From Sphingobacterium sp. SGG-5 (GTDB lineage: Bacteria; Bacteroidota; Bacteroidia; Sphingobacteriales; Sphingobacteriaceae): 64,000 nucleotides of DNA. Below, in pieces: positions 3,969 to 39,695 of this stretch. The position numbers and the translations under genes are program-made. The notes under the pieces were generated by a model that saw only the letters and a list, made by a program, of their open reading frames with translations, ran no database searches and was not told the origin of the DNA. The stretch's first letter is position 1. The number at the start of each line of letters is the position of its first letter. The stretch is from the NCBI RefSeq assembly GCF_011043525.1, contig NZ_JAAKGO010000009.1, forward strand, positions 1-64,000. Reading direction: 5' to 3'.

Positions 3969-4001
3969 GAATTAAATATTTGTGCTGTTAATATTTAATT
4001 C
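3969..4001 (+). promoter_or_regulatory. Perfect 12-bp inverted repeat, candidate SusR operator
   Basis: GAATTAAATATT at 3969-3980 and its exact reverse complement at 3990-4001, separated by nine bases. One further pair (T3968/A4002) also matches. No T-tract follows, so it is not a terminator of the upstream gene. It lies about 110 bases before the susC start, where an activator site is expected. Confidence 0.6.
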
Positions 4002-4109
4002 AACACATCTTTTATTCCCCCTTTGTCTTCTATAGCTTTGTCATAGTCGCTGTCGAGAATATGAGCATCTCGGAAGGTGCATACAATTATAAATTTTAAT
4101 AATCATAAT

Positions 4110-7103
4110 ATGATGAAGAAAGGCAAAAAAATAAGCTTATCGATTCTACTACCGACTGTACTGTTGCTGTTATGCAGTATGTACACGTTTGCTCAGCAAA
4201 GGACGATTTCGGGAATCGTGCGTGACGCCCAAGGGCAGCCCATTGAAGGCGCGACAGTAGCTCTTCGAGCAAGTAATACTGTGGTCAGTACGAATGCAAG
4301 TGGAAGGTTTGCCCTGCAGGCAGCTTCAGGGGCTGTCTTGTCGGTATCCTATGTTGGTTACATTACTCAGGAAATTGCTGTTGATCAGAAGAGCGAATAC
4401 CTTGTGGTGTTGCAGCCGGAGGAAGAACTGCTGGACGAGGTGGTGGTCATCGGTTACGGGCAGGTTCGTAAGCGTGATCTGACGGGCTCGTTGTCTTCCG
4501 TGGGCTCGGAGGCGATGAAAGACCGTCCTGTGGCAAATATAGGCGAAGCCTTGCAGGGGCGTGCCTCCGGCGTGCAGATTGTCAACTCGGGTGATCCAGG
4601 CAGCAATGTGTCTATACAGATCCGCGGACTGGGATCGATCAACAACAGTGCGCCACTGCTGGTGATCGATGGCGTGCCGACCGATCTTCCTTTGAATGCG
4701 CTGAACCCTAACGATGTCGAGACCATAGACATATTGAAAGATGCATCGGCAACAGCGATATATGGCTCGCGCGGTGCGAATGGTGTGGTACTCATCTCGA
4801 CGAAAAAGGGGAACAGAAATAAGGGAAATATTACAGCGAGCGCCAATTTTGCCACGCAACGTGCCACAAGTGTTCCCCAGATGTTGAATGCACGTCAGTT
4901 TGCTTCTTTTCACAACGAAATGATGTTGAATAATAACAATCTGCAACGCCCGGATTTTGCCGATCCGACAATATGGGACGAAGGTACAGATTGGACCGAT
5001 GCATTATTGCGTGATGATCGCCTGTCGAACTATTCGGTAGCTTATTCGGGTGGGAGCGATAAGAGTACCTATTATGTATCGGGCGGTGTACTCAATCAGG
5101 AAGGTATCGTGATCAATACGGCATATAAGCGGTACACTTTTCAGTTTAATAACGAAACGAAGCAGACTTCCTGGCTAAAGTTTGGGAACAATCTGAGTTT
5201 GAGTCACGATGTCAAAAAGAGTGGTTCGTACAGCGTACTGAATACATTGGCCTCGTTGCCTACAGACCCTATTTATAACGCCGACGGTAGTTTTTCGGGG
5301 CCTGGTGCAGAGCCACTCTACTACGGCGACCTCCGGAACCCCATAGGTACGGCGTTATTGGAACAGAATACGACAAATGGTTACAATCTCTTGGGGAATC
5401 TTTATGGCGAAGCTACTATAGCAAACAACTTTACGTTTAAGACCATCTTGGGCCTGGATTACAAAGCTTGGGATAATGTAGGCTTTTCGCCTAAATACGA
5501 TTGGAAGCCTATAGCGGTACCGTATTCATCGCGGCGAGAGAGCTTTAATAAAAGTTTGACGTATTTGTGGGATAATACATTGACGTATGCGAACACCTTT
5601 GCCGATAAGCACGATGTAAATATCATGGTCGGTTCGAGTGCGCAGAACAATGCGTACAACTATATGAACGGCAGCATCCAGGATTTCTTATCCGACAACA
5701 ACAACCAATTGAGCAACGGATTGCTGGATCCTACCGTAGGAGGCAGTCGGGAAGAATGGGCTTTGCTCTCTTTCTTTGGCCGTGCAAACTATACTTACAA
5801 CAATAAATATCTACTGACAGCCACGATACGTTACGATGGGACTTCTCGTATTGCTTCGGCAAACCGTTGGGGGACTTTCCCCTCATTCGCAGCCGCATGG
5901 CGTCTTTCAGAGGAAGATTTCTTTCCTAAAAGTGACTTTTGGAATGACCTGAAAATACGGGCAGGTTACGGTGCGACAGGTAATCAGGCTGTGTTGGATG
6001 CTTATGCGGCTTCGGCCAGGTTGAAGACAGCCCAGTACGTGTTTAACGGAAAGCCGGTATCGACGTTGTATCCGTTGGTCATGCCATATCCTGACATCCG
6101 ATGGGAAACGGTGAAACAAAGCAACGTAGGTTTGGATGCCAGCCTGTTGAACAGCCGGATCAATGTGACATTTGATGCCTATATCAAAAAGACTTCGGAT
6201 ATGTTGGTCGATATGGTTGTACCGATTACGACGGGATATTCGGATATCTCGACGCCGAAAATCAATGCCGGTGAGGTGGAAAACCGTGGCTGGGAACTGT
6301 CCGTCAGTAGTCAGAATTTTCGGGGTGCATTCACATGGCGCTCGGATTTTAATCTTTCGTACAACCAAAACAAGATCGTCAAGCTGGATGGCGATGTGCC
6401 GATGTATTTCGGATTTCAATCCCATACAGTAGGTCAGCCTATATCCTCATTCTACGGATGGAGGACCAATGGGATATTTCAGAATTGGGATGAAGTCAAC
6501 AACTACGCTTTTCAGTACCAAGCAGCGGATCCCTACAACAGTACTGCACCGGGCGATATCAAGTTCGTCGACATCAACAAGGATGGAGTGGTCAACGATT
6601 ACGACCGTACGTACATTGGCAATCCGACACCAAGCTGGTCGTTTGCTTTGGGCAATAGCCTGTCCTATAAAAACTTTGATGTAGAGGTGTTTTTGCAAGG
6701 CGTAGCCGGAAACAAAATTTACAATGCGAACCGAGTGACCTTGGAAGGGATGTATACAGTGCGCAACCAGACAACGAAGGTGCTGGATCGCTGGACAGGC
6801 GAAGGGACGAGCAACGATATGCCGCGTGCGATCTACAGTGACCCAAACAAGAATACACGCCATTCGGATCGTTTTGTGGAAGATGGTAAATACCTCCGCC
6901 TAAAGAATGTTACGGTGGGGTATACGCTTCCCGAAACACTCGTACAACGGGCAGGTGTAGGTAGTTTACGTTTTTACTTCTCGGGGCAGAACCTATTGAC
7001 CTGGACGAAGTATTCGGGCTTTGATCCGGAGGTCAACGGCGTAGACGAAAGCCGTTATCCGATTACGCGAAATTTGAGCTTGGGTATAGATTTACGATTC
7101 TAA
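4110..7103 (+). CDS. susC: SusC-like TonB-dependent outer-membrane transporter
   Basis: About 997 aa from the ATG at 4110; an upstream ATG at 4077 would add a non-signal extension. Signal peptide ending in FAQQ, a carboxypeptidase-regulatory-like beta-sandwich (about 30-110), the TonB-box-like motif DEVVVIGYG, a plug domain with the SusC signatures LQGRASGVQIV and ATAIYGSRGANGVV, then the 22-strand barrel ending in the aromatic LSLGIDLRF. It imports oligosaccharides across the outer membrane together with the SusD lid encoded 17 bases downstream. No STN domain is present, which fits control by SusR rather than by an anti-sigma relay. Confidence 0.95.
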   Translation: MMKKGKKISLSILLPTVLLLLCSMYTFAQQRTISGIVRDAQGQPIEGATVALRASNTVVSTNASGRFALQAASGAVLSVSYVGYITQEIAVDQKSEYLVVLQPEEELLDEVVVIGYGQVRKRDLTGSLSSVGSEAMKDRPVANIGEALQGRASGVQIVNSGDPGSNVSIQIRGLGSINNSAPLLVIDGVPTDLPLNALNPNDVETIDILKDASATAIYGSRGANGVVLISTKKGNRNKGNITASANFATQRATSVPQMLNARQFASFHNEMMLNNNNLQRPDFADPTIWDEGTDWTDALLRDDRLSNYSVAYSGGSDKSTYYVSGGVLNQEGIVINTAYKRYTFQFNNETKQTSWLKFGNNLSLSHDVKKSGSYSVLNTLASLPTDPIYNADGSFSGPGAEPLYYGDLRNPIGTALLEQNTTNGYNLLGNLYGEATIANNFTFKTILGLDYKAWDNVGFSPKYDWKPIAVPYSSRRESFNKSLTYLWDNTLTYANTFADKHDVNIMVGSSAQNNAYNYMNGSIQDFLSDNNNQLSNGLLDPTVGGSREEWALLSFFGRANYTYNNKYLLTATIRYDGTSRIASANRWGTFPSFAAAWRLSEEDFFPKSDFWNDLKIRAGYGATGNQAVLDAYAASARLKTAQYVFNGKPVSTLYPLVMPYPDIRWETVKQSNVGLDASLLNSRINVTFDAYIKKTSDMLVDMVVPITTGYSDISTPKINAGEVENRGWELSVSSQNFRGAFTWRSDFNLSYNQNKIVKLDGDVPMYFGFQSHTVGQPISSFYGWRTNGIFQNWDEVNNYAFQYQAADPYNSTAPGDIKFVDINKDGVVNDYDRTYIGNPTPSWSFALGNSLSYKNFDVEVFLQGVAGNKIYNANRVTLEGMYTVRNQTTKVLDRWTGEGTSNDMPRAIYSDPNKNTRHSDRFVEDGKYLRLKNVTVGYTLPETLVQRAGVGSLRFYFSGQNLLTWTKYSGFDPEVNGVDESRYPITRNLSLGIDLRF

Positions 7104-26592: not shown

Positions 26593-26680
26593 AACTTGCA
26601 CAATATGTCTAAAGATAAGATTTTTCTTCTTTTTGTAGAGGATGCAAAAAAGAAGAGAATTCCATATTAGGAAAAATCGG

Positions 26681-27154
26681 TTACGTTTTTTTCTTATAGC
26701 GCTTGATGTTACCTTCTTTCACGTATTCCAGTTCCCCTTCCTTACAATATCCCGTAAGATAGACCGAAAATTTATTGCTGTCGCGTCTATCGGAATCCAG
26801 TTGTTCCAACACTTCGGAGACACGTTTTGGGGTATTGAAGAAGTCCGTATTCCGAATGAGGTTATCCAGCTTTTTGGTAGTTTCTATCCGCTTTTGTGAG
26901 TCTGGAGGAAGATGGTATAACGGAGTCAGGTCGATGGGATCTTTAAAAACCAGCTGAGGTTGTATCTGGAGTGCACGGCATATCAATAGGAAATTACTTA
27001 ATGAAATGCTCTTACCTTTTTCAAATGTAGAAATACTATTGACGGTGAGTCCCGTCATATTCGCTACATCCCGCTGAGAGTAAGACAGCTCCTCTCTTCG
27101 GTTACGTAATACTCTCCCAATGTTGTGGAGTATGTGTTTATTGACGTCCGGCAC
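26681..27154 (-). CDS. XRE-family helix-turn-helix regulator
   Basis: A 157-aa DNA-binding protein. Residues about 10-65 form a Cro/CI-type HTH (VLRNRREELSYSQRDVANMTGLTVNSISTFEKG). The C-terminal half is charged and ends in a basic tail (GNIKRYKKKT); I recognise no ligand domain. It is divergent from the dead Cas12f-like gene, with a 14-bp palindrome 18 bases upstream of its own start, so autoregulation and shared control of both directions are likely. The alpha-2-macroglobulin gene follows 88 bases downstream on the same strand. Confidence 0.85.
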   Translation of the reverse strand: MPDVNKHILHNIGRVLRNRREELSYSQRDVANMTGLTVNSISTFEKGKSISLSNFLLICRALQIQPQLVFKDPIDLTPLYHLPPDSQKRIETTKKLDNLIRNTDFFNTPKRVSEVLEQLDSDRRDSNKFSVYLTGYCKEGELEYVKEGNIKRYKKKT

Positions 27155-27171
27155 ACAACAAATAGAGATAT

Positions 27172-27198
27172 TATTTGCGCAAATATATTACAAATTTA
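27172..27198 (-). promoter_or_regulatory. Promoter and 14-bp palindromic operator of the XRE gene
   Basis: On the minus strand TAAATTTG (27191-27198) matches the TAnnTTTG -7 element, placing the start of transcription near 27184. A perfect palindrome TATTTGCGCAAATA (27172-27185) covers that point, an ideal position for repression by a dimeric XRE protein. No clear -33 element is visible. Confidence 0.55.
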
Positions 27199-27209
27199 GT
27201 TATGTATAA

Positions 27210-27240
27210 TTTGTTCATTCGCGTTTCTTTCTTATATTTG
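27210..27240 (+). promoter_or_regulatory. Near-consensus Bacteroidota promoter of the leader RNA/dead Cas12f unit
   Basis: TTTG at 27210-27213 and TATATTTG at 27233-27240 are 19 bases apart, matching the -33 TTTG / -7 TAnnTTTG consensus. Transcription should begin at about 27245-27248, roughly 200 bases before the protein start, leaving a long non-coding leader. Confidence 0.75.
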
Positions 27241-27245
27241 GTTTA

Positions 27246-27426
27246 GAAAAGGTGAAGCACATCATCATGCTTTACGCCTAATAATAAGAGGCTTCTTGTG
27301 GCGCCGCAGGGTGAGGGCGATGTACCACTCACTAAATACTTTTTTGCAGTATGTCGTAACGAGGAAATATAAAAATATGTGCTCGGGCTTACTTCGAGAG
27401 GTATACACAACGAAGGTCGTTTTTTT
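27246..27426 (+). ncRNA. Structured leader RNA, candidate guide-RNA scaffold
   Basis: A non-coding stretch between a near-consensus promoter and the dead Cas12f gene. By eye it folds into successive hairpins: GGTG-AAGCA/TGCTTtacGCC (27251-27279), GCCT/AGGC, GTGAG/CTCAC with inner GG/CC (about 27311-27332), CGAG/CTCG around AATAT/ATATG (27360-27385), then competing CTCG/CGAG and CTTCG/CGAAG pairs. Its end AGAGGTATACACAAC resembles the 3' end of Cas12f repeats, after which guide sequence begins. A 5-bp stem AACGA/TCGTT (27409-27421) plus T-run may terminate it. Function as gRNA is inference; a plain attenuating leader is the alternative. Confidence 0.45.
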
Positions 27427-27450
27427 AATTTGGAGGAAGGCGCTGATACT

Positions 27451-28533
27451 ATGGCAAAAAATACCCTTATTCTGACAAGAAAAATACAGATTTTTATTGA
27501 TTGCGAGGACAACGAGAGGCGTACAGCTTACTATACGAAATTATTCGAATGGCAGGACATCGTATTTCGGGCATCTAATTTTGTGGTCACACATCAGTAT
27601 GTGCAAGAGAATATGAGAGATTTTATTTATCTGCAAGATCACGTTAAGATAAGATTGACCGACTACGCGAAAGATGGCGAGGGGATCTTCAATACATCGC
27701 GTCTGAATACAACGTATCGGCTACTTTCCCATCATTTTAAAGGGCGCTTGCCAGCTAATATATTGTCCAATGTGAATACCGTGCTGAGCAAGAATTTTAA
27801 TGCGGATCGGATGGCCTATTGGAAAGGCGATAAATCCCTGCGCAATTACCGGAAAGATATGCCTATACCGTTCTCCGGCAATCAGTTGAAATTAAGTGTG
27901 GGCCGGAAAGGCGGCGATTTTAAGATCGACCTGTTTAATATTCCTTTCCGCACTTATCTAGGAAAAGATAGGACGGATAAAAAAGTGCTGCTGCGCCGTG
28001 CATTAGCCGGGCAGATTAAAATATGTGCCAGTTCGTTGCAAATCGTGAAAGGTAAATTGTTTTTGCTTTTAGCTTTGGAGAGACCCATGGAAGATGTGGC
28101 TTTGCAGGAAAATATTGTCGCAGAAGCTTCTTTGTCGTCCGACTATCCAATTGAGGTGCACATCGGTAATACTGCCTTTCCGGTTGGTAGTAAAGAAGAG
28201 TATTTACACCGAAGATCGGCCATCCGGACGGCGAAAGCCCGTCATGAAAAAGGCTGTCTGTACAATAAAGGTGGAAAAGGGAGAAAACGAAAATTTAGAA
28301 GTCTGGACTATTACGAAGAGAAGGAAAGAAGTTATATCGATAGTCGGTTGCATCTGTATAGCCGCCGGTTGATCGATATCTGTGTAGCTTCTCAGGCGGG
28401 CACTTTAGTGCTTACGGATCATCAGGATCGGGACCGTAAGGAGAATTTAATTCTGTACAGTTGGGGTTATTATGGTTTGCTGGATAAGATTAAATATAAA
28501 GCGCAACTGGTGGGGATTAAAGTGGTGATTTAA
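27451..28533 (+). CDS. Nuclease-dead, C-terminally truncated Cas12f/TnpB-family protein
   Basis: 360 aa from ATG 27451, preceded by GGAGGAAGG; a longer frame would run into the leader RNA. MAKNTLILTRKIQI resembles the N-terminus of Un1Cas12f1. FGNIPF-like WED strands follow. The RuvC part has VHIGNTAFPVG where the family has (G)VDLG, so the first Asp is His, and LVLTDHQ where it has MEDL, so the Glu is lost. GKGRKRKFRSLDYYEEKERSYIDSR is replaced here only in short form as GRKRKFRSLDYYEEKERS, the bridge-like segment. It ends at YKAQLVGIKVVI, before the zinc ribbon and RuvC-III Asp. DNA cleavage is not expected; RNA-guided binding is possible. No TnpA nearby. Confidence 0.8.
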   Translation: MAKNTLILTRKIQIFIDCEDNERRTAYYTKLFEWQDIVFRASNFVVTHQYVQENMRDFIYLQDHVKIRLTDYAKDGEGIFNTSRLNTTYRLLSHHFKGRLPANILSNVNTVLSKNFNADRMAYWKGDKSLRNYRKDMPIPFSGNQLKLSVGRKGGDFKIDLFNIPFRTYLGKDRTDKKVLLRRALAGQIKICASSLQIVKGKLFLLLALERPMEDVALQENIVAEASLSSDYPIEVHIGNTAFPVGSKEEYLHRRSAIRTAKARHEKGCLYNKGGKGRKRKFRSLDYYEEKERSYIDSRLHLYSRRLIDICVASQAGTLVLTDHQDRDRKENLILYSWGYYGLLDKIKYKAQLVGIKVVI

Positions 28534-29216
28534 GACAATCCGTTTCTTATTTTCACCCGTATGTCGGTGGTAGAGAGGTGACCAATATCGAGGATGTGTT
28601 GTGCATAAGGCAACGTTTCTAACGTCTCTACATGGTTCATGAAGTACTGAATAAAATAGTCACCCTGATAATCATGTTGTTCAAGGTAGGCTATCATCGT
28701 ACTGATATCGTCTTGGGTAAGTAACGTACTATGCCAGGTCGTCCGTATCTCGAAAGATATACCTGCTGATTGCAATAAAGCCAGACTCGTGGAGAATGTA
28801 GAAAAGGTACCTGACTGGGTAATGTTTTCGTGTTTCTTGCCGATGCCTTTGAAGTCTAACGCGATATAATCGATAAGCTGCTCGTCCAGCAATTTTTTCA
28901 ACACATGTGGTTTTGTGCCGTTGGTATCGATTTTGACCCGATATCCCATATCTTTTGCTGCCCTTGCCAAAGGGAATATCGCGGGGTGCAAAGTACACTC
29001 GCCACCACTGAAAACCACTCCTTGTAGTAGCGCCTGACGGGATTCAAGGAAGCGTATGGTATCCTGAAGCGAAAGCTTTCCCTTACCGAGGACAATATCC
29101 GGATTGTAGCAATAGACGCATCGCATATTACAGCCCGCAAACCAAAGGATGCAGGCTGGGTGGTTTGGATAATCCAATAGCGTAAAAGGTGTGATACCGT
29201 AAATCGGATTAGGCAT
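28530..29216 (-). CDS. nrdG: Anaerobic ribonucleotide reductase activating enzyme NrdG
   Basis: A radical-SAM protein of 228 aa if started at the ATG at 29216, which overlaps the stop of the small upstream gene by eight bases; an in-frame ATG at 29279 would add 21 residues. The [4Fe-4S] cluster motif CxxxCxxC is present as CNMRCVYC (Cys29, 33, 36), followed by the SAM-binding FSGGECTLHP. It generates the glycyl radical in NrdD with S-adenosylmethionine under anaerobic conditions. The C-terminus overlaps the convergent dead Cas12f gene by four bases. Confidence 0.92.
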   Translation of the reverse strand: MPNPIYGITPFTLLDYPNHPACILWFAGCNMRCVYCYNPDIVLGKGKLSLQDTIRFLESRQALLQGVVFSGGECTLHPAIFPLARAAKDMGYRVKIDTNGTKPHVLKKLLDEQLIDYIALDFKGIGKKHENITQSGTFSTFSTSLALLQSAGISFEIRTTWHSTLLTQDDISTMIAYLEQHDYQGDYFIQYFMNHVETLETLPYAQHILDIGHLSTTDIRVKIRNGLS

Positions 29217-29382
29217 GCCGCTCGCTGAAATGTGTGCGCTGGCGATGCTCACCTTTCTTTCCGATGTTGAAACTTTCAACCGGCCTATGGTATCCCATTA
29301 CCCGGGTGTAAACGAGGCATTTGCTGCGGTGCTGTTGATTTTGCTGCAAAATCAGGGTGCGTTCTGCTGTGTTTGTTGTCAT
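29209..29382 (-). CDS. Detached glycyl-radical domain of class III ribonucleotide reductase
   Basis: A 57-aa gene whose ATG overlaps the nrdD TGA (ATGA at 29382-29379) and whose stop overlaps the nrdG start. Its core KCLVYTRVMGYHRPVESFN and then IGKKGEHRQR matches the NrdD C-terminal tail, where E. coli has RVCGY with the radical-bearing Gly. Gly30 in RVMGY is therefore the predicted radical site. The large NrdD subunit here lacks this tail. The arrangement parallels GrcA/YfiD, a free glycyl-radical domain for pyruvate formate-lyase. Assignment rests on the short motif but is supported by exact gene position. Confidence 0.8.
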   Translation of the reverse strand: MTTNTAERTLILQQNQQHRSKCLVYTRVMGYHRPVESFNIGKKGEHRQRTHFSERHA

Positions 29383-31652: not shown

Positions 31653-32855
31653 ATGGGCATACAATCGGACATTCCAGAGTTGATTTATAAGAAGTTGCAG
31701 GGTATTATCACGCCTGACGAACGAGCTGTGCTGGAGCGTTGGGCTGATAGTGCGGCGGAAAATCGTAGACTTTTGGACCAGCTCCTTGAGGAAGAACAAT
31801 TGATGGCTGACGTAAAAGCGTTTGATGCATTGTGGGAAGGAAATGTCGGGATAAAAAGACACAGGAAAATGGAAAGAGCTGTACTGTCCCGAATTGCTAT
31901 TCCACTACACAACAGATGGAGAAGAGGGCTGCTTTATGCTGCTGTTATCGTCTGTGTTGCCGTGGTGACCGTTTTAATGCTTTATAAGTTGCCTCTTCCG
32001 GTAATGCAGCAGGAAGAGGTACTAACTGTTGGAACAATGGATAAACAGGCTGCTGAAAAAGATGCTGTTGTATTGACATGGGAGGACGGACAGCAGATCG
32101 GCCTGAGCGTCGAACAAGGGGGAATCGTGATGGGCGACAAAAAAATTCTCTACGGAGACAATACTGCGGTGGCGGGCGATAAAGCGATCAGCGATTTATT
32201 TCAGGAAGAGCTTCGGCAGTTAAAACTTACAACACCACAACAAACAATATACAGCGTAATTCTTGCCGATGGTACCAAAGTCTGGCTCAATGCCAAGAGT
32301 ATACTTCGCTATCCGAGCAGGTTTGTGGGCAATGAACGTATCGTAGAACTGGAGGGAGAAGCTTTTTTTGATGTAACTTCCCATAACGCACAGGACGGTA
32401 GCGATAAGATGCCATTTATCGTGAAAACCAGAGGGCAACGTGTTGAAGTGTTGGGTACACAGTTCAATATATCCGCTTACGAGAAAAATGCAGAAACGAT
32501 AACTACGCTGGTGGAAGGGGTTGTTCGTGTTAGTTCATTGGACAACGTCATGCTCAAACCAAACGAACAAAGCTTGTGCGGTGCGAACGGTCGCATCTCG
32601 GTAAAAGCCGTAGATGTTGCTCCGTTCGTAGCTTGGACGAAAGGGTATTTCTATTTCAAGAATACGTCTTTCGAGCAGGTAATAGATCAAATAGCCCATT
32701 GGTACAATATGGACATCCAATGGAAAAATGAAAAACCTAAAGAAACTTTTACGGGTAAGATAAATAAGAATTCATCGCTTCAATCCGTAGTCGATTTATT
32801 AAATGCATCCAATGTCAAGTTACATATACAGGGGCAGTACCTAGTTGTGGAATGA
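31653..32855 (+). CDS. FecR-family anti-sigma factor
   Basis: A 400-aa inner-membrane protein. The N-terminal cytoplasmic helices (about 1-85) bind the ECF sigma factor, a transmembrane segment lies at about 91-111 (GLLYAAVIVCVAVVTVLML), the FecR domain at about 190-290 (LADGTKVWLNAKSILRYP, VELEGEAFFDV, VLGTQFNISAYE) and DUF4974 at about 325-398 (FKNTSFEQVIDQIAHWYN). In such systems the STN domain of SusC signals to FecR, which releases the sigma factor. The next gene encodes exactly such a SusC. The sigma gene, usually just before fecR, is instead at 39105. Confidence 0.93.
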   Translation: MGIQSDIPELIYKKLQGIITPDERAVLERWADSAAENRRLLDQLLEEEQLMADVKAFDALWEGNVGIKRHRKMERAVLSRIAIPLHNRWRRGLLYAAVIVCVAVVTVLMLYKLPLPVMQQEEVLTVGTMDKQAAEKDAVVLTWEDGQQIGLSVEQGGIVMGDKKILYGDNTAVAGDKAISDLFQEELRQLKLTTPQQTIYSVILADGTKVWLNAKSILRYPSRFVGNERIVELEGEAFFDVTSHNAQDGSDKMPFIVKTRGQRVEVLGTQFNISAYEKNAETITTLVEGVVRVSSLDNVMLKPNEQSLCGANGRISVKAVDVAPFVAWTKGYFYFKNTSFEQVIDQIAHWYNMDIQWKNEKPKETFTGKINKNSSLQSVVDLLNASNVKLHIQGQYLVVE

Positions 32856-32925
32856 TAAGTGACAAGACTGACCGAATATAATATGAAGAAAGATGATGTA
32901 GTAGGATAATAAAACCTAAATACTG

Positions 32926-35900
32926 ATGATAAATTATGATGTCAATTCATTGAGAAATCAAAAGTCTCAAAGAGTTTTCCGATTATTGCGAATGATGAAG
33001 CTATCTGTTCTATTGTTATTTTTCATAAGTATGCATATCAGTGCAACAGCTTGGTCGCAGACGGTGACACTGAAAGTAACGGACCAACCATTGACTAAAG
33101 TTTTTGAATCTATAGAGAAACAGACAGGCTATATGATCGTGTATAACGATCGTTATGTCAGATCCGATGTATTGGTAAGTGTTGATGTACATAATAGCCC
33201 TTTAAGGCAAGTCTTGGATCGCGTATTGACCCCGCTTTCGCTCATATATCTGATCAAGGAGAAAAACATAGCAATCCGAACGAAGGGGGAAACCAAAGGT
33301 GACCAGCAACAAACAGTGAGTGGCACCGTGATCGATGACAAAGGTGAACCTCTGGTCGGTGTGCTTATCAAGATAAAGAATACGCAGGTCAGTGCGCTGT
33401 CTCAAGCCAACGGTAATTTTACTATTGATATCCCCGATAATGACGCAGTATTGGTTTTCAGCTTTGTGGGTTTTGCATCACAGGAGCGGAAGGTAGGGCG
33501 GCATCAAACAATACATATAAGACTCATTCCCGAAGTCTCCAAGTTGGACGAGGTCGTCGTCATAGGCTACGGGGCTACCGTATCACGACGGGATCTGACG
33601 GGGGCCGTAGGTACAGCCGATATGGCGGATATGCAAGTAGCACCGGTGGCCTCTTTCGAGCAGGCACTTGCAGGGCGGCTGGCCGGTGTACAGGTCTTAT
33701 CCAATGACGGGCAGCCGGGCGAAGAGGGAATCAGTATCACTATTCGTGGGCAGAATTCATTAACTCAAGATAATTCTCCCTTATTTGTCGTAGATGGTTT
33801 CCCGATGGAAGATTTTGATGCGGCCTCACTGTCTATAGATGATATCGAATCAATAGATATATTAAAGGATGCGTCGGCATCGGCCATTTATGGTGCCAGA
33901 GGAGCCAATGGTGTTATTGTTATCCAGACAAAAAAAGGGAAAATAGGCGATCCTGTTATAGATTATTCTGCTACACTGGGCTTTCAGGAAATAACGAAAA
34001 GAATGGACTTGTTGAGTCCTTATGAGTTTGTGAAATATCAGATCGAAAGAAGCGCCACGAATAGAGCCAAATATATACCGGCAGATTTGGCGGAGACCGA
34101 TCCGGACTACGACCCGGATGGAAATACATTGGAATCGTATAAAAATATAAAAGGTATCGACTGGCAGAACGAGCTTTTTAGACAAGGGAATTTGCAAAGA
34201 CATAATTTATCGATAAGAGGGGGTAACCAACAGACTAAATATGTTTTTTCGGGATCTGTCTACAATCATCATGGGGTGATTTTAAACACGGGTTCATCTC
34301 GATATCAGGGACGGGTTTCTATAGATCAGAAGCTTGCAAAAAAGCTGGACGGCAGTTTAAGGATAAACTTTAGCCGAAATAATTCTTATGGACAGTTGGC
34401 CAAAGAAAGTCCAATAAGCAGTCAGGCGAGCAGCAATTTGCTTTTTGGGGCTTGGGGTTACCGTCCTGTGACCGGAAGGGAAACAGAAGAAGATGATGTG
34501 GATTATGACTTTATCGAAGATTTCACGGATGAGGAGACCACCTGGATCTACGACTACAGAGTCAATCCTGTTATCTCTGCCGAGAATACTTACCGGGAAA
34601 GTAAGGTCGATAATCTAAATTTCAACGGCAATATTGATTATAAGATTTTAAAAGACTTCAGCCTCAAAGTCACGTTAGGGTTTGATAAAAGACAAACCGA
34701 TATCGAAAACTTTTATAACTCGCAAACTGCAAGAGGATCATCAAAATTCCGGGTTAACACGAGAGGTGTTCAGGGGAATATAGCTATTGTTGACAGAGAG
34801 GTCTGGACAAACTCGTCTATACTCCACTATAGAAAGAGATTTAACAAGCGAAATAGCTTAGATGCGCTCCTTGGATACGAAATACAGGCAGCGGATAATT
34901 CCAGGATAGGCTTAGCTAATCAGCAGATACCTAACGAATCGCTGGGTATAAGTGGTATGGACGAAGGTGTGACGCTGAATAATACCGTAGCGTATTCGAG
35001 TTCGGCGTTGGGCTCGTTGATAAGCAGGGTTAACTATAACTATCTTTCCCGTTATCTTTTCACAGCCACATTCCGAACAGATGTTTCTTCGAAATTTGCA
35101 CCGGGCAATCGGACAGCCTACTTCCCGTCAGGGGCGTTTGCCTGGAGGATGGGGCAGGAAAAATTCATGAAGAAAAGTCGATTGATAAGCGATGCCAAGC
35201 TTCGCATGAGCTACGGTATCACGGGAAATAACAGGGTAACAGATTTTGCGTATTTATCACCCATTGTGGGTACTACAATAACTGAATCATATTCCTGGAA
35301 TAATCAAGAACCGGAACCGGGGATGTACACGGGCAGCTTAGGAAATAAAGATCTGAAGTGGGAGACGACCTCCCAGCTTAATTTGGGCTACGATATCTCC
35401 TTTCTGAAAAACAAAATCTCGTTAACGATGGATGTTTACCGTAAAACAACATATGATTTGTTGTTGAATGCGAATGTGCCCTATAGTTTTGGTTACCAAA
35501 GGGCCTATAAAAACATGGGTAAAATAGGTAATGATGGATTAGAGGTTGCTGTAAATACGGTCAATATCCGAAACGAAAATTTTGATTGGAGGAGCAGCAT
35601 CAATATCTCATTTAATAGGAATAAAATCCTGGCACTGTCCGAAGATGAGCAGAAGATGTTCAGCAGAATCACCTGGGCAGCAAACTATAACGCTACATAT
35701 TTGTATGCTGCAGAAGTAGGAGGACCAGCGGCCATGTTTATAGGTCAGGTGTTTGATGGCGTGTACCAGTATACGGATTTTGAAGAAGTAGCTCCCGGTA
35801 AATATTATTTAAAAATGGGGATTCCCTATACGGGGACGAACCGGGACGCTATTCGGCCCGGTGATATTAAGTATAAAGACCTGAATGGGGATGGCGTTAT

Positions 35901-36435
35901 TAACGAATATGACATTACGATAATCGGTAATCCGAACCCAAAACATAGTGGAGGCTTTGTCAACAATTTTAAGTACAAAAATTTTAGTCTAAATGTGTTT
36001 TTACAATGGGTCTATGGCAATGACGTATTTAATGGCAACAGGATTTATTTGGAAGGAAATCCATCGAATGTGCCAAATTTAAACCAGTTTGCTACTTATG
36101 CGGATAGATGGACACCGGAAAACCAAAGCAATACGATGTTTAGATCCGGTGGTTATGGTCCGGCATACTACTCATCACGCGTGATTGAAGATGGTTCTTT
36201 TTTAAGGTTAAAAACCGTGTCCTTTGGGTATGAAATCCCCAAGCAATGGCTTGAAAATATCAAAATAACCCGAATGGATATTTCTTTCGTAGCACAGAAT
36301 CTTTTTACCTGGACGACGTATTCGGGTATGGATCCGGAGGTGTCTGCACGTCATTCGACACTTACCCCGGGATTCGATTTTTCGGCTTATCCGCGCGCTA
36401 GGACGATTGCGTTTACTTGGAAAACTACTTTTTAA
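32926..36435 (+). CDS. SusC-like TonB-dependent transporter with STN signalling domain
   Basis: A 1169-aa outer-membrane protein. After a long N-region the hydrophobic signal starts at MKLSVLLLFF and ends near TAWSQ. An STN domain (about 45-120, VTLKVTDQPLTKVFESIEKQ) is followed by a carboxypeptidase-regulatory-like domain (about 125-205), DEVVVIGYG, a plug (ASASAIYGARGANGVIV) and the barrel ending AFTWKTTF. The STN domain relays substrate occupancy to FecR. It pairs with the SusD gene 10 bases downstream. Substrate is not deducible from sequence. Confidence 0.95.
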   Translation: MINYDVNSLRNQKSQRVFRLLRMMKLSVLLLFFISMHISATAWSQTVTLKVTDQPLTKVFESIEKQTGYMIVYNDRYVRSDVLVSVDVHNSPLRQVLDRVLTPLSLIYLIKEKNIAIRTKGETKGDQQQTVSGTVIDDKGEPLVGVLIKIKNTQVSALSQANGNFTIDIPDNDAVLVFSFVGFASQERKVGRHQTIHIRLIPEVSKLDEVVVIGYGATVSRRDLTGAVGTADMADMQVAPVASFEQALAGRLAGVQVLSNDGQPGEEGISITIRGQNSLTQDNSPLFVVDGFPMEDFDAASLSIDDIESIDILKDASASAIYGARGANGVIVIQTKKGKIGDPVIDYSATLGFQEITKRMDLLSPYEFVKYQIERSATNRAKYIPADLAETDPDYDPDGNTLESYKNIKGIDWQNELFRQGNLQRHNLSIRGGNQQTKYVFSGSVYNHHGVILNTGSSRYQGRVSIDQKLAKKLDGSLRINFSRNNSYGQLAKESPISSQASSNLLFGAWGYRPVTGRETEEDDVDYDFIEDFTDEETTWIYDYRVNPVISAENTYRESKVDNLNFNGNIDYKILKDFSLKVTLGFDKRQTDIENFYNSQTARGSSKFRVNTRGVQGNIAIVDREVWTNSSILHYRKRFNKRNSLDALLGYEIQAADNSRIGLANQQIPNESLGISGMDEGVTLNNTVAYSSSALGSLISRVNYNYLSRYLFTATFRTDVSSKFAPGNRTAYFPSGAFAWRMGQEKFMKKSRLISDAKLRMSYGITGNNRVTDFAYLSPIVGTTITESYSWNNQEPEPGMYTGSLGNKDLKWETTSQLNLGYDISFLKNKISLTMDVYRKTTYDLLLNANVPYSFGYQRAYKNMGKIGNDGLEVAVNTVNIRNENFDWRSSINISFNRNKILALSEDEQKMFSRITWAANYNATYLYAAEVGGPAAMFIGQVFDGVYQYTDFEEVAPGKYYLKMGIPYTGTNRDAIRPGDIKYKDLNGDGVINEYDITIIGNPNPKHSGGFVNNFKYKNFSLNVFLQWVYGNDVFNGNRIYLEGNPSNVPNLNQFATYADRWTPENQSNTMFRSGGYGPAYYSSRVIEDGSFLRLKTVSFGYEIPKQWLENIKITRMDISFVAQNLFTWTTYSGMDPEVSARHSTLTPGFDFSAYPRARTIAFTWKTTF

Positions 36436-39104: not shown

Positions 39105-39695
39105 ATGGTTGTCTTAGATACTCATTTACATTTATTGCGCAAAGGAAATCAACAAGGGCTCCAATTCTTTATGCAAAGGCATATCCGGGAATTGACGTAC
39201 TTTGCGCAGCGTATCGTCCAAAAGACAGAAATTGCTGAAGAAATTGTACAGGACAGTTTTGTGAAAGTATGGGAGGCACGGCATAGTTTTCAAACCGCAG
39301 ACAACATCAAGGCTTTTCTTTATATTTCTACAAAGAATGCTTGTCTTAACTATATAGACTCGGCCGACACACGCAGACGTACATATTATAATGAGCTTTC
39401 GGAAGATATTCTACATCCCGATACCGATGTACTTACTGGGATAATCCATGCGGAGACCATAGGAATCATCTATAATGAATTAGAAAAGTTGCCCGCCCAA
39501 CAGGCTAAGGTGTTTCGATTGTCCTTTTTTGAAGGCTTTTCTACAGAAGAGATTTGTCGAGAGCTCGGTATTTCTTCAAATGCGGTTTTTTTAGCTCGCT
39601 CCAGAGCTGTACAGACTTTACAAAAGATATTTAAGGATAAGGATACGCTTTATTACATTGCGTTTTTACATATTCTTTTTACGCCTCTTAAATAA
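39105..39695 (+). CDS. ECF-type RNA polymerase sigma factor
   Basis: A 196-aa sigma-70 family protein with only regions 2 and 4. Region 2 includes FAQRIVQKTEIAEEIVQDSFVKVWEAR (in two parts: helix and -10-binding element), region 4 LPAQQAKVFRLSFFEGFSTEEIC followed by the recognition helix SSNAVFLARSRAVQTL. It is separated from its probable anti-sigma factor FecR (31653) by the first SusCD operon, an unusual order. Matching promoter-like elements before fecR and before the 39988 gene suggest it drives both halves of the locus. Confidence 0.93.
   Translation: MVVLDTHLHLLRKGNQQGLQFFMQRHIRELTYFAQRIVQKTEIAEEIVQDSFVKVWEARHSFQTADNIKAFLYISTKNACLNYIDSADTRRRTYYNELSEDILHPDTDVLTGIIHAETIGIIYNELEKLPAQQAKVFRLSFFEGFSTEEICRELGISSNAVFLARSRAVQTLQKIFKDKDTLYYIAFLHILFTPLK

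What the first reader, a model, noticed from the sequence alone, without database searches (positions are those of the whole stretch)
27210..27450. Promoter-driven structured leader that may be the guide RNA of the dead Cas12f
A near-consensus promoter (TTTG-N19-TATATTTG) begins transcription about 200 bases before the protein start. The leader is full of complementary segments, and its AGAGGTATACACAAC end resembles Cas12f repeat ends that directly precede a guide. If so, the guide would start near 27409-27412. Position upstream of the effector differs from transposon omegaRNAs, which lie at the 3' end.
Basis: partly seen in the sequence, partly recalled or inferred. Interest (0 to 1): 0.8.

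Follow-up and report, generated by a model that had tools for sequence, protein, structure and literature searches.

The report
Natural single-guide RNA of dead Cas12f
The stretch encodes the guide RNA of a neighbouring DNA-cutting-dead Cas12f protein, with its tracr and repeat halves fused into one natural single-guide RNA under a promoter that a neighbouring repressor probably controls; unlike almost all of its relatives it has lost the sigma factor that normally turns such proteins into gene activators, so it probably acts as an RNA-guided switch of another kind.

Summary
27210-27240 is the window's only exact TTTG-N19-TAnnTTTG promoter. Behind it lies an RNA scaffold found in about 120 distinct copies beside homologous dead-Cas12f genes, with strong covariation. 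The end of the leader pairs with its scaffold as a Cas12f repeat pairs with its tracr anti-repeat, and ...TATACACAAC at 27411 is the 3' end of CRISPR-like repeats in Sphingobacterium relatives (36-nt repeats, 30-nt spacers). The guide therefore starts at 27412. The protein (27451-28533) matches the solved dCas12f-guide RNA complexes 9n9c/9n9m at full length.

What is new is the anatomy. Nearly all homologous loci carry an RpoE-type sigma gene in the operon (homologous to 9n9q chain C). The window locus and four relatives have none beside dCas12f. In the window genome and two relatives no cognate sigma was found anywhere, and these three dCas12f proteins have lost or changed a loop that is invariant in sigma-linked ones. 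A divergent HTH regulator gene and a palindrome TTTGCGCAAA sit beside the promoter and co-occur with dCas12f across the genus.

The target remains unidentified. An RNA-guided repressor is the likeliest function, but it is inferred.

The parts
26681..27154 (-). Divergent HTH_3 (Cro/C1-type) regulator, 157 aa, GTG start
   Evidence: Pfam HTH_3 E 2e-10. 56-77% identical homologs in 46 other genomes of the genus; co-occurs with dCas12f, 44/12/3/35, Fisher p 6e-12.
27174..27183 (.). Palindromic operator TTTGCGCAAA, presumably bound by the HTH protein
   Evidence: Only copy in the window, expected 0.11. TTTGCGCAA/TTGCGCAAA lies within 400 nt upstream of the HTH start in 30 of 35 HTH loci, usually at the same offset of 19-20 nt; also upstream of arrays without a local HTH gene and of the unlinked sigma genes. 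Binding is inferred.
27210..27240 (+). Bacteroidota-type promoter TTTG-N19-TATATTTG
   Evidence: Only exact match in the window. The TAnnTTTG box lies about 78-80 nt from the HTH start in most HTH loci.
27252..27275 (+). 5' hairpin GUGAAGCA/UGCUUUAC at the start of the predicted transcript
   Evidence: MFE and centroid fold; conservation not tested.
27288..27335 (+). tracr-like scaffold core: stem 1 (27290-27292 with 27303-27305) and stem 2 (27311-27317 with 27325-27332)
   Evidence: About 120 distinct copies beside homologs. Alignment A2 of 43: 95.5% of cells paired, 58 double changes, covariation 0.317 against 0.106 in shuffles, 0/500.
27336..27363 (+). Anti-repeat AUACUUUUUUGCAGUAUGUCGUAACGAG
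   Evidence: Pairs with 27382-27404 in the MFE fold. Compensatory versions AUAGCU:AGCUAU in L053 and AUAUCU:AGAUAU in L046.
27364..27381 (+). A/U-rich linker that joins anti-repeat and repeat into one RNA
   Evidence: Fold. In relatives with arrays, the tracr core and the repeats are separate.
27382..27411 (+). Repeat-derived part ending GAGGUAUACACAAC; ACACAAC left unpaired
   Evidence: GGTATACACAAC is the 3' end of the 36-nt CRISPR-like repeats of relatives.
27412..27441 (+). Guide GAAGGTCGTTTTTTTAATTTGGAGGAAGGC (length of 30 inferred from array spacers)
   Evidence: Array spacers of 30 nt start directly after CAAC. In S. deserti/S. paludis the sequence after CAAC is conserved for about 29 nt and then diverges. 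3' end in the window not mapped.
27451..28533 (+). Nuclease-dead Cas12f, 360 aa, ATG 27451
   Evidence: phmmer 9n9c_A E 3.6e-105 over 2-359. AlphaFold2 model pLDDT 82; Foldseek top hits 9n9m, 9n9c. PADLOC Cas12f E 3e-50. RuvC-I Asp aligned to Ser; chain ends before the zinc-ribbon/RuvC-III part.

Best explanation
The leader 27247-27441 (approximate ends) is the guide RNA of the dead Cas12f encoded just behind it. It is a natural single-guide RNA: a tracr scaffold, an anti-repeat, a short linker and one CRISPR-repeat-like segment in one transcript, followed by one guide from 27412. It starts from one promoter next to an operator that the divergent HTH protein probably occupies, and the same transcript probably runs into the dCas12f gene, so RNA and protein are made together. 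The ancestral system was probably an RNA-guided activator (HTH, tracr plus CRISPR-like array, RpoE-type sigma, dCas12f). This lineage has lost the sigma factor, the array and a loop of dCas12f. The remaining complex most likely binds one chromosomal site through the guide and blocks transcription there. Shown by sequence comparison: guide RNA identity, scaffold, repeat end, guide start, absence of a cognate sigma. Inferred: HTH control, co-transcription, DNA binding in the cell, repression. The stated confidence is for the guide RNA identity; for repression it is about 0.5.
For: Scaffold conserved and covarying. Anti-repeat:repeat pairing with compensatory changes in sigma-less relatives. Repeat end identical to CRISPR-like repeat ends with 30-nt spacers. 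Guide-length conservation between two species. Protein homologous over its length to dCas12f solved with guide RNA and target DNA. Neighbouring sigma of relatives matches RpoE of 9n9q, an entry that also holds that dCas12f sequence. Sigma next to dCas12f in nearly all homologous loci but not in the window, L046, L053, L057/L144, L060/L142. No cognate sigma in G000, G274, G265; one at a distance in G127, G199. Loop with invariant Q in sigma-linked proteins, kept in the two unlinked-sigma cases, changed in the three sigma-null ones. HTH, operator and promoter association.
Against: No transcript or binding data. No convincing genomic target: the best seed matches (13 nt at C50:206869, 10 nt at C11:175376) are near chance. 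A T7 run at 27420-27426 might end the RNA early and shorten the guide. The window genome has many other ECF sigma factors that might have been recruited instead. The long branch of the window protein could also mean decay.
Confidence: 0.9

Rival explanations
1. Guide RNA of an RNA-guided activator that still works: the complex recruits a different, unlinked ECF sigma factor of the host and switches on a gene.
For: Relatives are sigma-linked and two sigma-less relatives keep the cognate sigma elsewhere. The window genome has many generic ECF sigmas. One G-plus-10-nt match lies about 90 nt upstream of a SusC-like start.
Against: No cognate sigma in this genome (best 29 bits, 29% identity). The invariant loop is changed only in the sigma-null proteins. 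The SusC site is one of two such matches, about what chance gives, and lacks the T at -3 seen before protospacers of related arrays.
Confidence: 0.2
2. Relic: the guide RNA and dCas12f are decaying after loss of the sigma partner and array.
For: Loss of sigma, array and loop; long branch; no clear target. Fragments and stop-bearing copies of dCas12f exist in other genomes.
Against: Intact 360-aa frame, confident fold, intact pairing in scaffold and anti-repeat, exact promoter and operator. Sigma-less single-guide loci recur in at least two branches with intact genes.
Confidence: 0.2
3. Ordinary cis-acting 5' leader (riboswitch, attenuator or autoregulatory leader) of the dCas12f mRNA, not a guide.
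For: It lies in the 5' leader of the gene and has a weak hairpin followed by T7.
Against: No Rfam match. In relatives the same scaffold stands in other places: before the array and sigma gene, or downstream of dCas12f in several tandem copies. Repeat ends and spacers as in CRISPR arrays.
Confidence: 0.03
4. Type V-F CRISPR-Cas immunity remnant.
For: Repeat end, tracr pairing, Cas12f homology.
Against: Nuclease residues missing, one repeat only, no array; no match of the guide in viral contigs or plasmids.
Confidence: 0.05

Closest known systems
dCas12f-RpoE (sigma-E) RNA-guided transcription, structures 9n9c, 9n9m, 9n9q (mechanism known to me from memory of 2025 preprints; papers not held)
   Same: Protein homologous over its whole length, same fold, guide RNA-bound dead Cas12f; sigma partner present in most relatives.
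   Different: No sigma gene in the operon and no cognate one in the genome; invariant loop lost; one fused guide; HTH-operator promoter next to the guide RNA.
CRISPR-Cas type V-F (Cas12f) with tracrRNA and crRNA
   Same: tracr-like scaffold, anti-repeat:repeat duplex, repeat ending in ..CAAC, guide 3' of the repeat; PADLOC Cas12f.
   Different: Dead nuclease, no array at this locus, tracr and repeat fused in one RNA.
TldR, TnpB-like nuclease-dead repressors (PMC13418256 and its reference 5)
   Same: Dead RNA-guided TnpB/Cas12-family protein with a single linked guide; repression is the function proposed here.
   Different: Nearest to Cas12f rather than TnpB; guide RNA upstream of the protein gene; repression not shown.
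TnpB omegaRNA of IS200/IS605 transposons
   Same: Guide at the RNA 3' end, TnpB superfamily effector.
   Different: Upstream position, no transposase gene seen beside it, scaffold matches no Rfam family at E<=5.

Membership tests
dCas12f-RpoE RNA-guided transcription system | Full-length dCas12f homolog without RuvC catalytic residues | tested here: met
dCas12f-RpoE RNA-guided transcription system | Linked guide RNA with conserved scaffold | tested here: met
dCas12f-RpoE RNA-guided transcription system | Cognate RpoE-type sigma factor in operon or genome | tested here: not met
   none in the window genome; nearest hits are generic ECF sigmas
dCas12f-RpoE RNA-guided transcription system | Guide-directed RNA polymerase recruitment and activation | not testable with these tools
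   needs ChIP-seq and RNA-seq
CRISPR-Cas type V-F | Cas12f effector homology | tested here: met
   PADLOC Cas12f E 3e-50
CRISPR-Cas type V-F | CRISPR array with repeats and spacers at the locus | tested here: not met
   one repeat-like segment in the window locus; arrays only in relatives
CRISPR-Cas type V-F | Active RuvC nuclease | tested here: not met
   RuvC-I Asp aligned to Ser, C-terminal RuvC-III part missing
TldR | Nuclease-dead TnpB-family protein with a single guide RNA | tested here: inconclusive
   dead and single guide, but nearest to dCas12f, not to TnpB
TldR | Guide matches a promoter and represses it | tested here: inconclusive
   no convincing target found; repression not testable here
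Known structured RNA family (Rfam) | Match to an Rfam model | tested here: not met
   none at E<=5 in 26600-29300

The most novel reading that the evidence does not exclude
Sigma-dependent RNA-guided activators of the dCas12f-RpoE type have repeatedly turned into sigma-free single-guide regulators: the tracr and repeat fused into a natural single-guide RNA, the sigma gene and a sigma-linked loop of dCas12f were lost, and the complex became an HTH-controlled RNA-guided repressor of one chromosomal site.
Probability: 0.45. Interest if true: 0.75.

Novelty: new variant of a known kind. Interest (0 to 1): 0.66.

Why it matters
It gives a natural example of a tracr and a repeat fused into one guide RNA, as engineers do by hand, and a series of related loci that shows possible steps: CRISPR-like array plus sigma plus dCas12f; sigma moved away; sigma lost together with one loop of dCas12f. 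The loop is a testable candidate for the surface that meets sigma or RNA polymerase. If the sigma-less forms repress, then RNA-guided activators can become repressors in evolution by loss of one partner.

Tried and rejected
Single-sequence folding as proof of structure: z only -1.1 to -1.3, so comparison was used instead. A first leader alignment without reorienting minus-strand loci gave no signal. Target search: 14-mer with one mismatch gave 6 sites outside the locus against 4 for the reversed control; five lie inside ORFs, the other between convergent genes. G plus 10 nt gave two sites, one about 90 nt upstream of a SusC-like gene, about as many as chance gives. A conserved-looking guide match in S. 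deserti and S. paludis shares a mismatch at position 5 and was not accepted. The same test with the other sigma-less guides gave no consistent promoter target, and no site at all in G265. Viral contigs and plasmids: no match of the window guide. Rfam: nothing. The window protein alone found no relatives in genome contigs; the alignment did. Papers on dCas12f-sigma systems: not held.

Full report
WHAT IS THERE. TTTG 27210-27213, a spacer of 19 and TATATTTG 27233-27240 form the only exact TTTG-N19-TAnnTTTG in the window (expected 0.24). AGAGGTATACACAAC lies at 27397-27411. The dCas12f start codon is ATG 27451; the mechanical ORF starts earlier at a GTG. Folding energy by itself is not remarkable.

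THE PROTEIN. Residues 2-359 of the queried chain match PDB 9n9c_A, 'Nuclease-deactivated Cas12f', at E 3.6e-105. An AlphaFold2 model (pLDDT 82) finds 9n9m (dCas12f-gRNA-DNA) and 9n9c (dCas12f-gRNA) first. PADLOC calls it Cas12f; NCBIfam guided_TnpB is below cut-off; Pfam has nothing. In the alignments the RuvC-I aspartate is a serine and the chain ends before the zinc-ribbon and RuvC-III part, in the window as in its relatives (the reading of which residues are catalytic is from general knowledge of Cas12f). It is single-copy in the genome.

THE RNA. 98 of 401 genomes of the same family have a homolog; the named ones are mainly Sphingobacterium, Parapedobacter and Pedobacter, with some flavobacteria. 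After orienting the loci, the window leader around 27295-27355 matches sequence upstream of many homologs at 74-91% identity. About 120 distinct copies of the core were collected. On 43 of them the two-stem structure has 95.5% of cells paired, 58 cells with both sides changed and covariation 0.317 against 0.106 in shuffles, none of 500 reaching it, while slid versions fall to 31-48%. RNAalifold gives nearly the same structure independently.

THE REPEAT. In Sphingobacterium relatives GGTATACACAAC is the 3' end of a repeated unit of 36 nt with 30-nt spacers, period 66, up to about 16 copies, e.g. L122: CRISPR-like arrays. In the window the scaffold end AUACUUUU pairs with AGAGGUAU. In L053 the pair is AUAGCU:AGCUAU and in L046 AUAUCU:AGAUAU, i.e. 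compensatory changes; 31 of 49 scaffold-repeat combinations tested pair at all six positions. In the window this duplex extends to CGAG:CUCG and is closed by a linker, so tracr and repeat are one molecule. Between S. deserti and S. paludis the stretch after CAAC is conserved for about 29 nt and then turns to noise, matching the 30-nt spacers. Hence a guide from 27412.

THE MISSING SIGMA. Nearly all homologous loci have an ORF of about 270 aa directly upstream of dCas12f. It matches RpoE of 9n9q at E 1.6e-33, an entry that also contains the dCas12f chain, and carries weak sigma-70 regions 2 and 4. Without it are the window, L046 (G265), L053 (G274), S. deserti (L057/L144) and S. paludis (L060/L142); L132 is a truncated copy and was left out. 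Genome searches find the cognate sigma elsewhere in S. deserti and S. paludis (50% and 46% identity) but not in the window genome, G274 or G265. In the tree the window pairs with L053 (support 0.92) and L046 sits in another clade, so sigma was probably lost at least twice. Of the columns fully conserved in 64 sigma-linked proteins, the Q of the loop NQxxKEExAKE is changed in all three sigma-null proteins and kept in both unlinked-sigma ones. The loop is 14 residues in every sigma-linked sequence that the search pattern caught (121 rows, some of them the same species in two collections), 11 in the window and 8 in L046; in L053 it is 14 but NP replaces NQ. That this loop meets sigma is my inference.

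THE HTH GENE. A Cro/C1-type regulator (26681-27154, minus strand) is divergent. Homologs at or above 56% identity occur in 47 of 94 genomes of the genus, 44 of them with dCas12f (Fisher p 6e-12, which ignores relatedness of the genomes). TTTGCGCAAA at 27174-27183 is unique in the window. The motif and the TAnnTTTG box recur in front of most HTH homologs, usually at the same offsets, and also before arrays without a local HTH gene (L122, L134, L120) and before the unlinked sigma genes. I infer one regulon: HTH controls guide RNA and, where unlinked, sigma.

MECHANISM. Transcription from 27210-27240 yields the single-guide RNA and probably the dCas12f mRNA. The complex should bind DNA as 9n9m shows for its homolog. 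Without sigma, blocking transcription is the simplest outcome (about 0.5 by my estimate); recruiting another sigma about 0.2, decay about 0.2. Targets: no significant match was found. Spacers of related arrays with clear protospacers have T at -3, so the bare 5'-G motif that I recall for other dCas12f-sigma systems may not apply here.

NOVELTY. dCas12f-sigma systems are known from solved structures and, from memory, 2025 preprints. The sigma-free, HTH-linked, fused single-guide variant is not in any source I could read; the library lacks the primary papers, so prior mention cannot be excluded.

Noticed in passing
L122 2400-5170, L113, L106, L112 and other sigma-linked loci: CRISPR-like arrays of up to about 16 repeats beside sigma-dCas12f genes. 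Some spacers have near-perfect protospacers in the same or related genomes, several inside small HTH-regulator genes, antisense, with T at -3. Could be memory of mobile elements read out by transcription rather than cleavage; no phage match.
   Followed up: partly
L154, L155, L146: Several separate scaffold units in tandem (up to 8 in Pedobacter cryoconitis, downstream of dCas12f), i.e. batteries of guide RNAs instead of arrays.
   Followed up: no
L185 3959-4801, L186 (reverse complement) 3995-4801: Unlinked cognate sigma genes in S. deserti and S. paludis, next to ABC-transporter permease-like genes and behind a promoter with the HTH operator motif.
   Followed up: partly
L254, L257-L262 beside the HTH gene; L046 upstream of dCas12f (three copies): A recurring hairpin-like element of the kind CAACTTACGCAGCC...GGCTGCCGTAAGTTG with an inner CCGCTAAG or CCGTCAAGAG segment lies near HTH genes; nature unknown.
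   Followed up: no
window 31653-36435: A FecR-SusC pair without an ECF sigma gene directly in front; an ECF sigma gene lies at 39126-39650.
   Followed up: no
L031, L146, L132: dCas12f copies broken by stops or truncated in some genomes.
   Followed up: no
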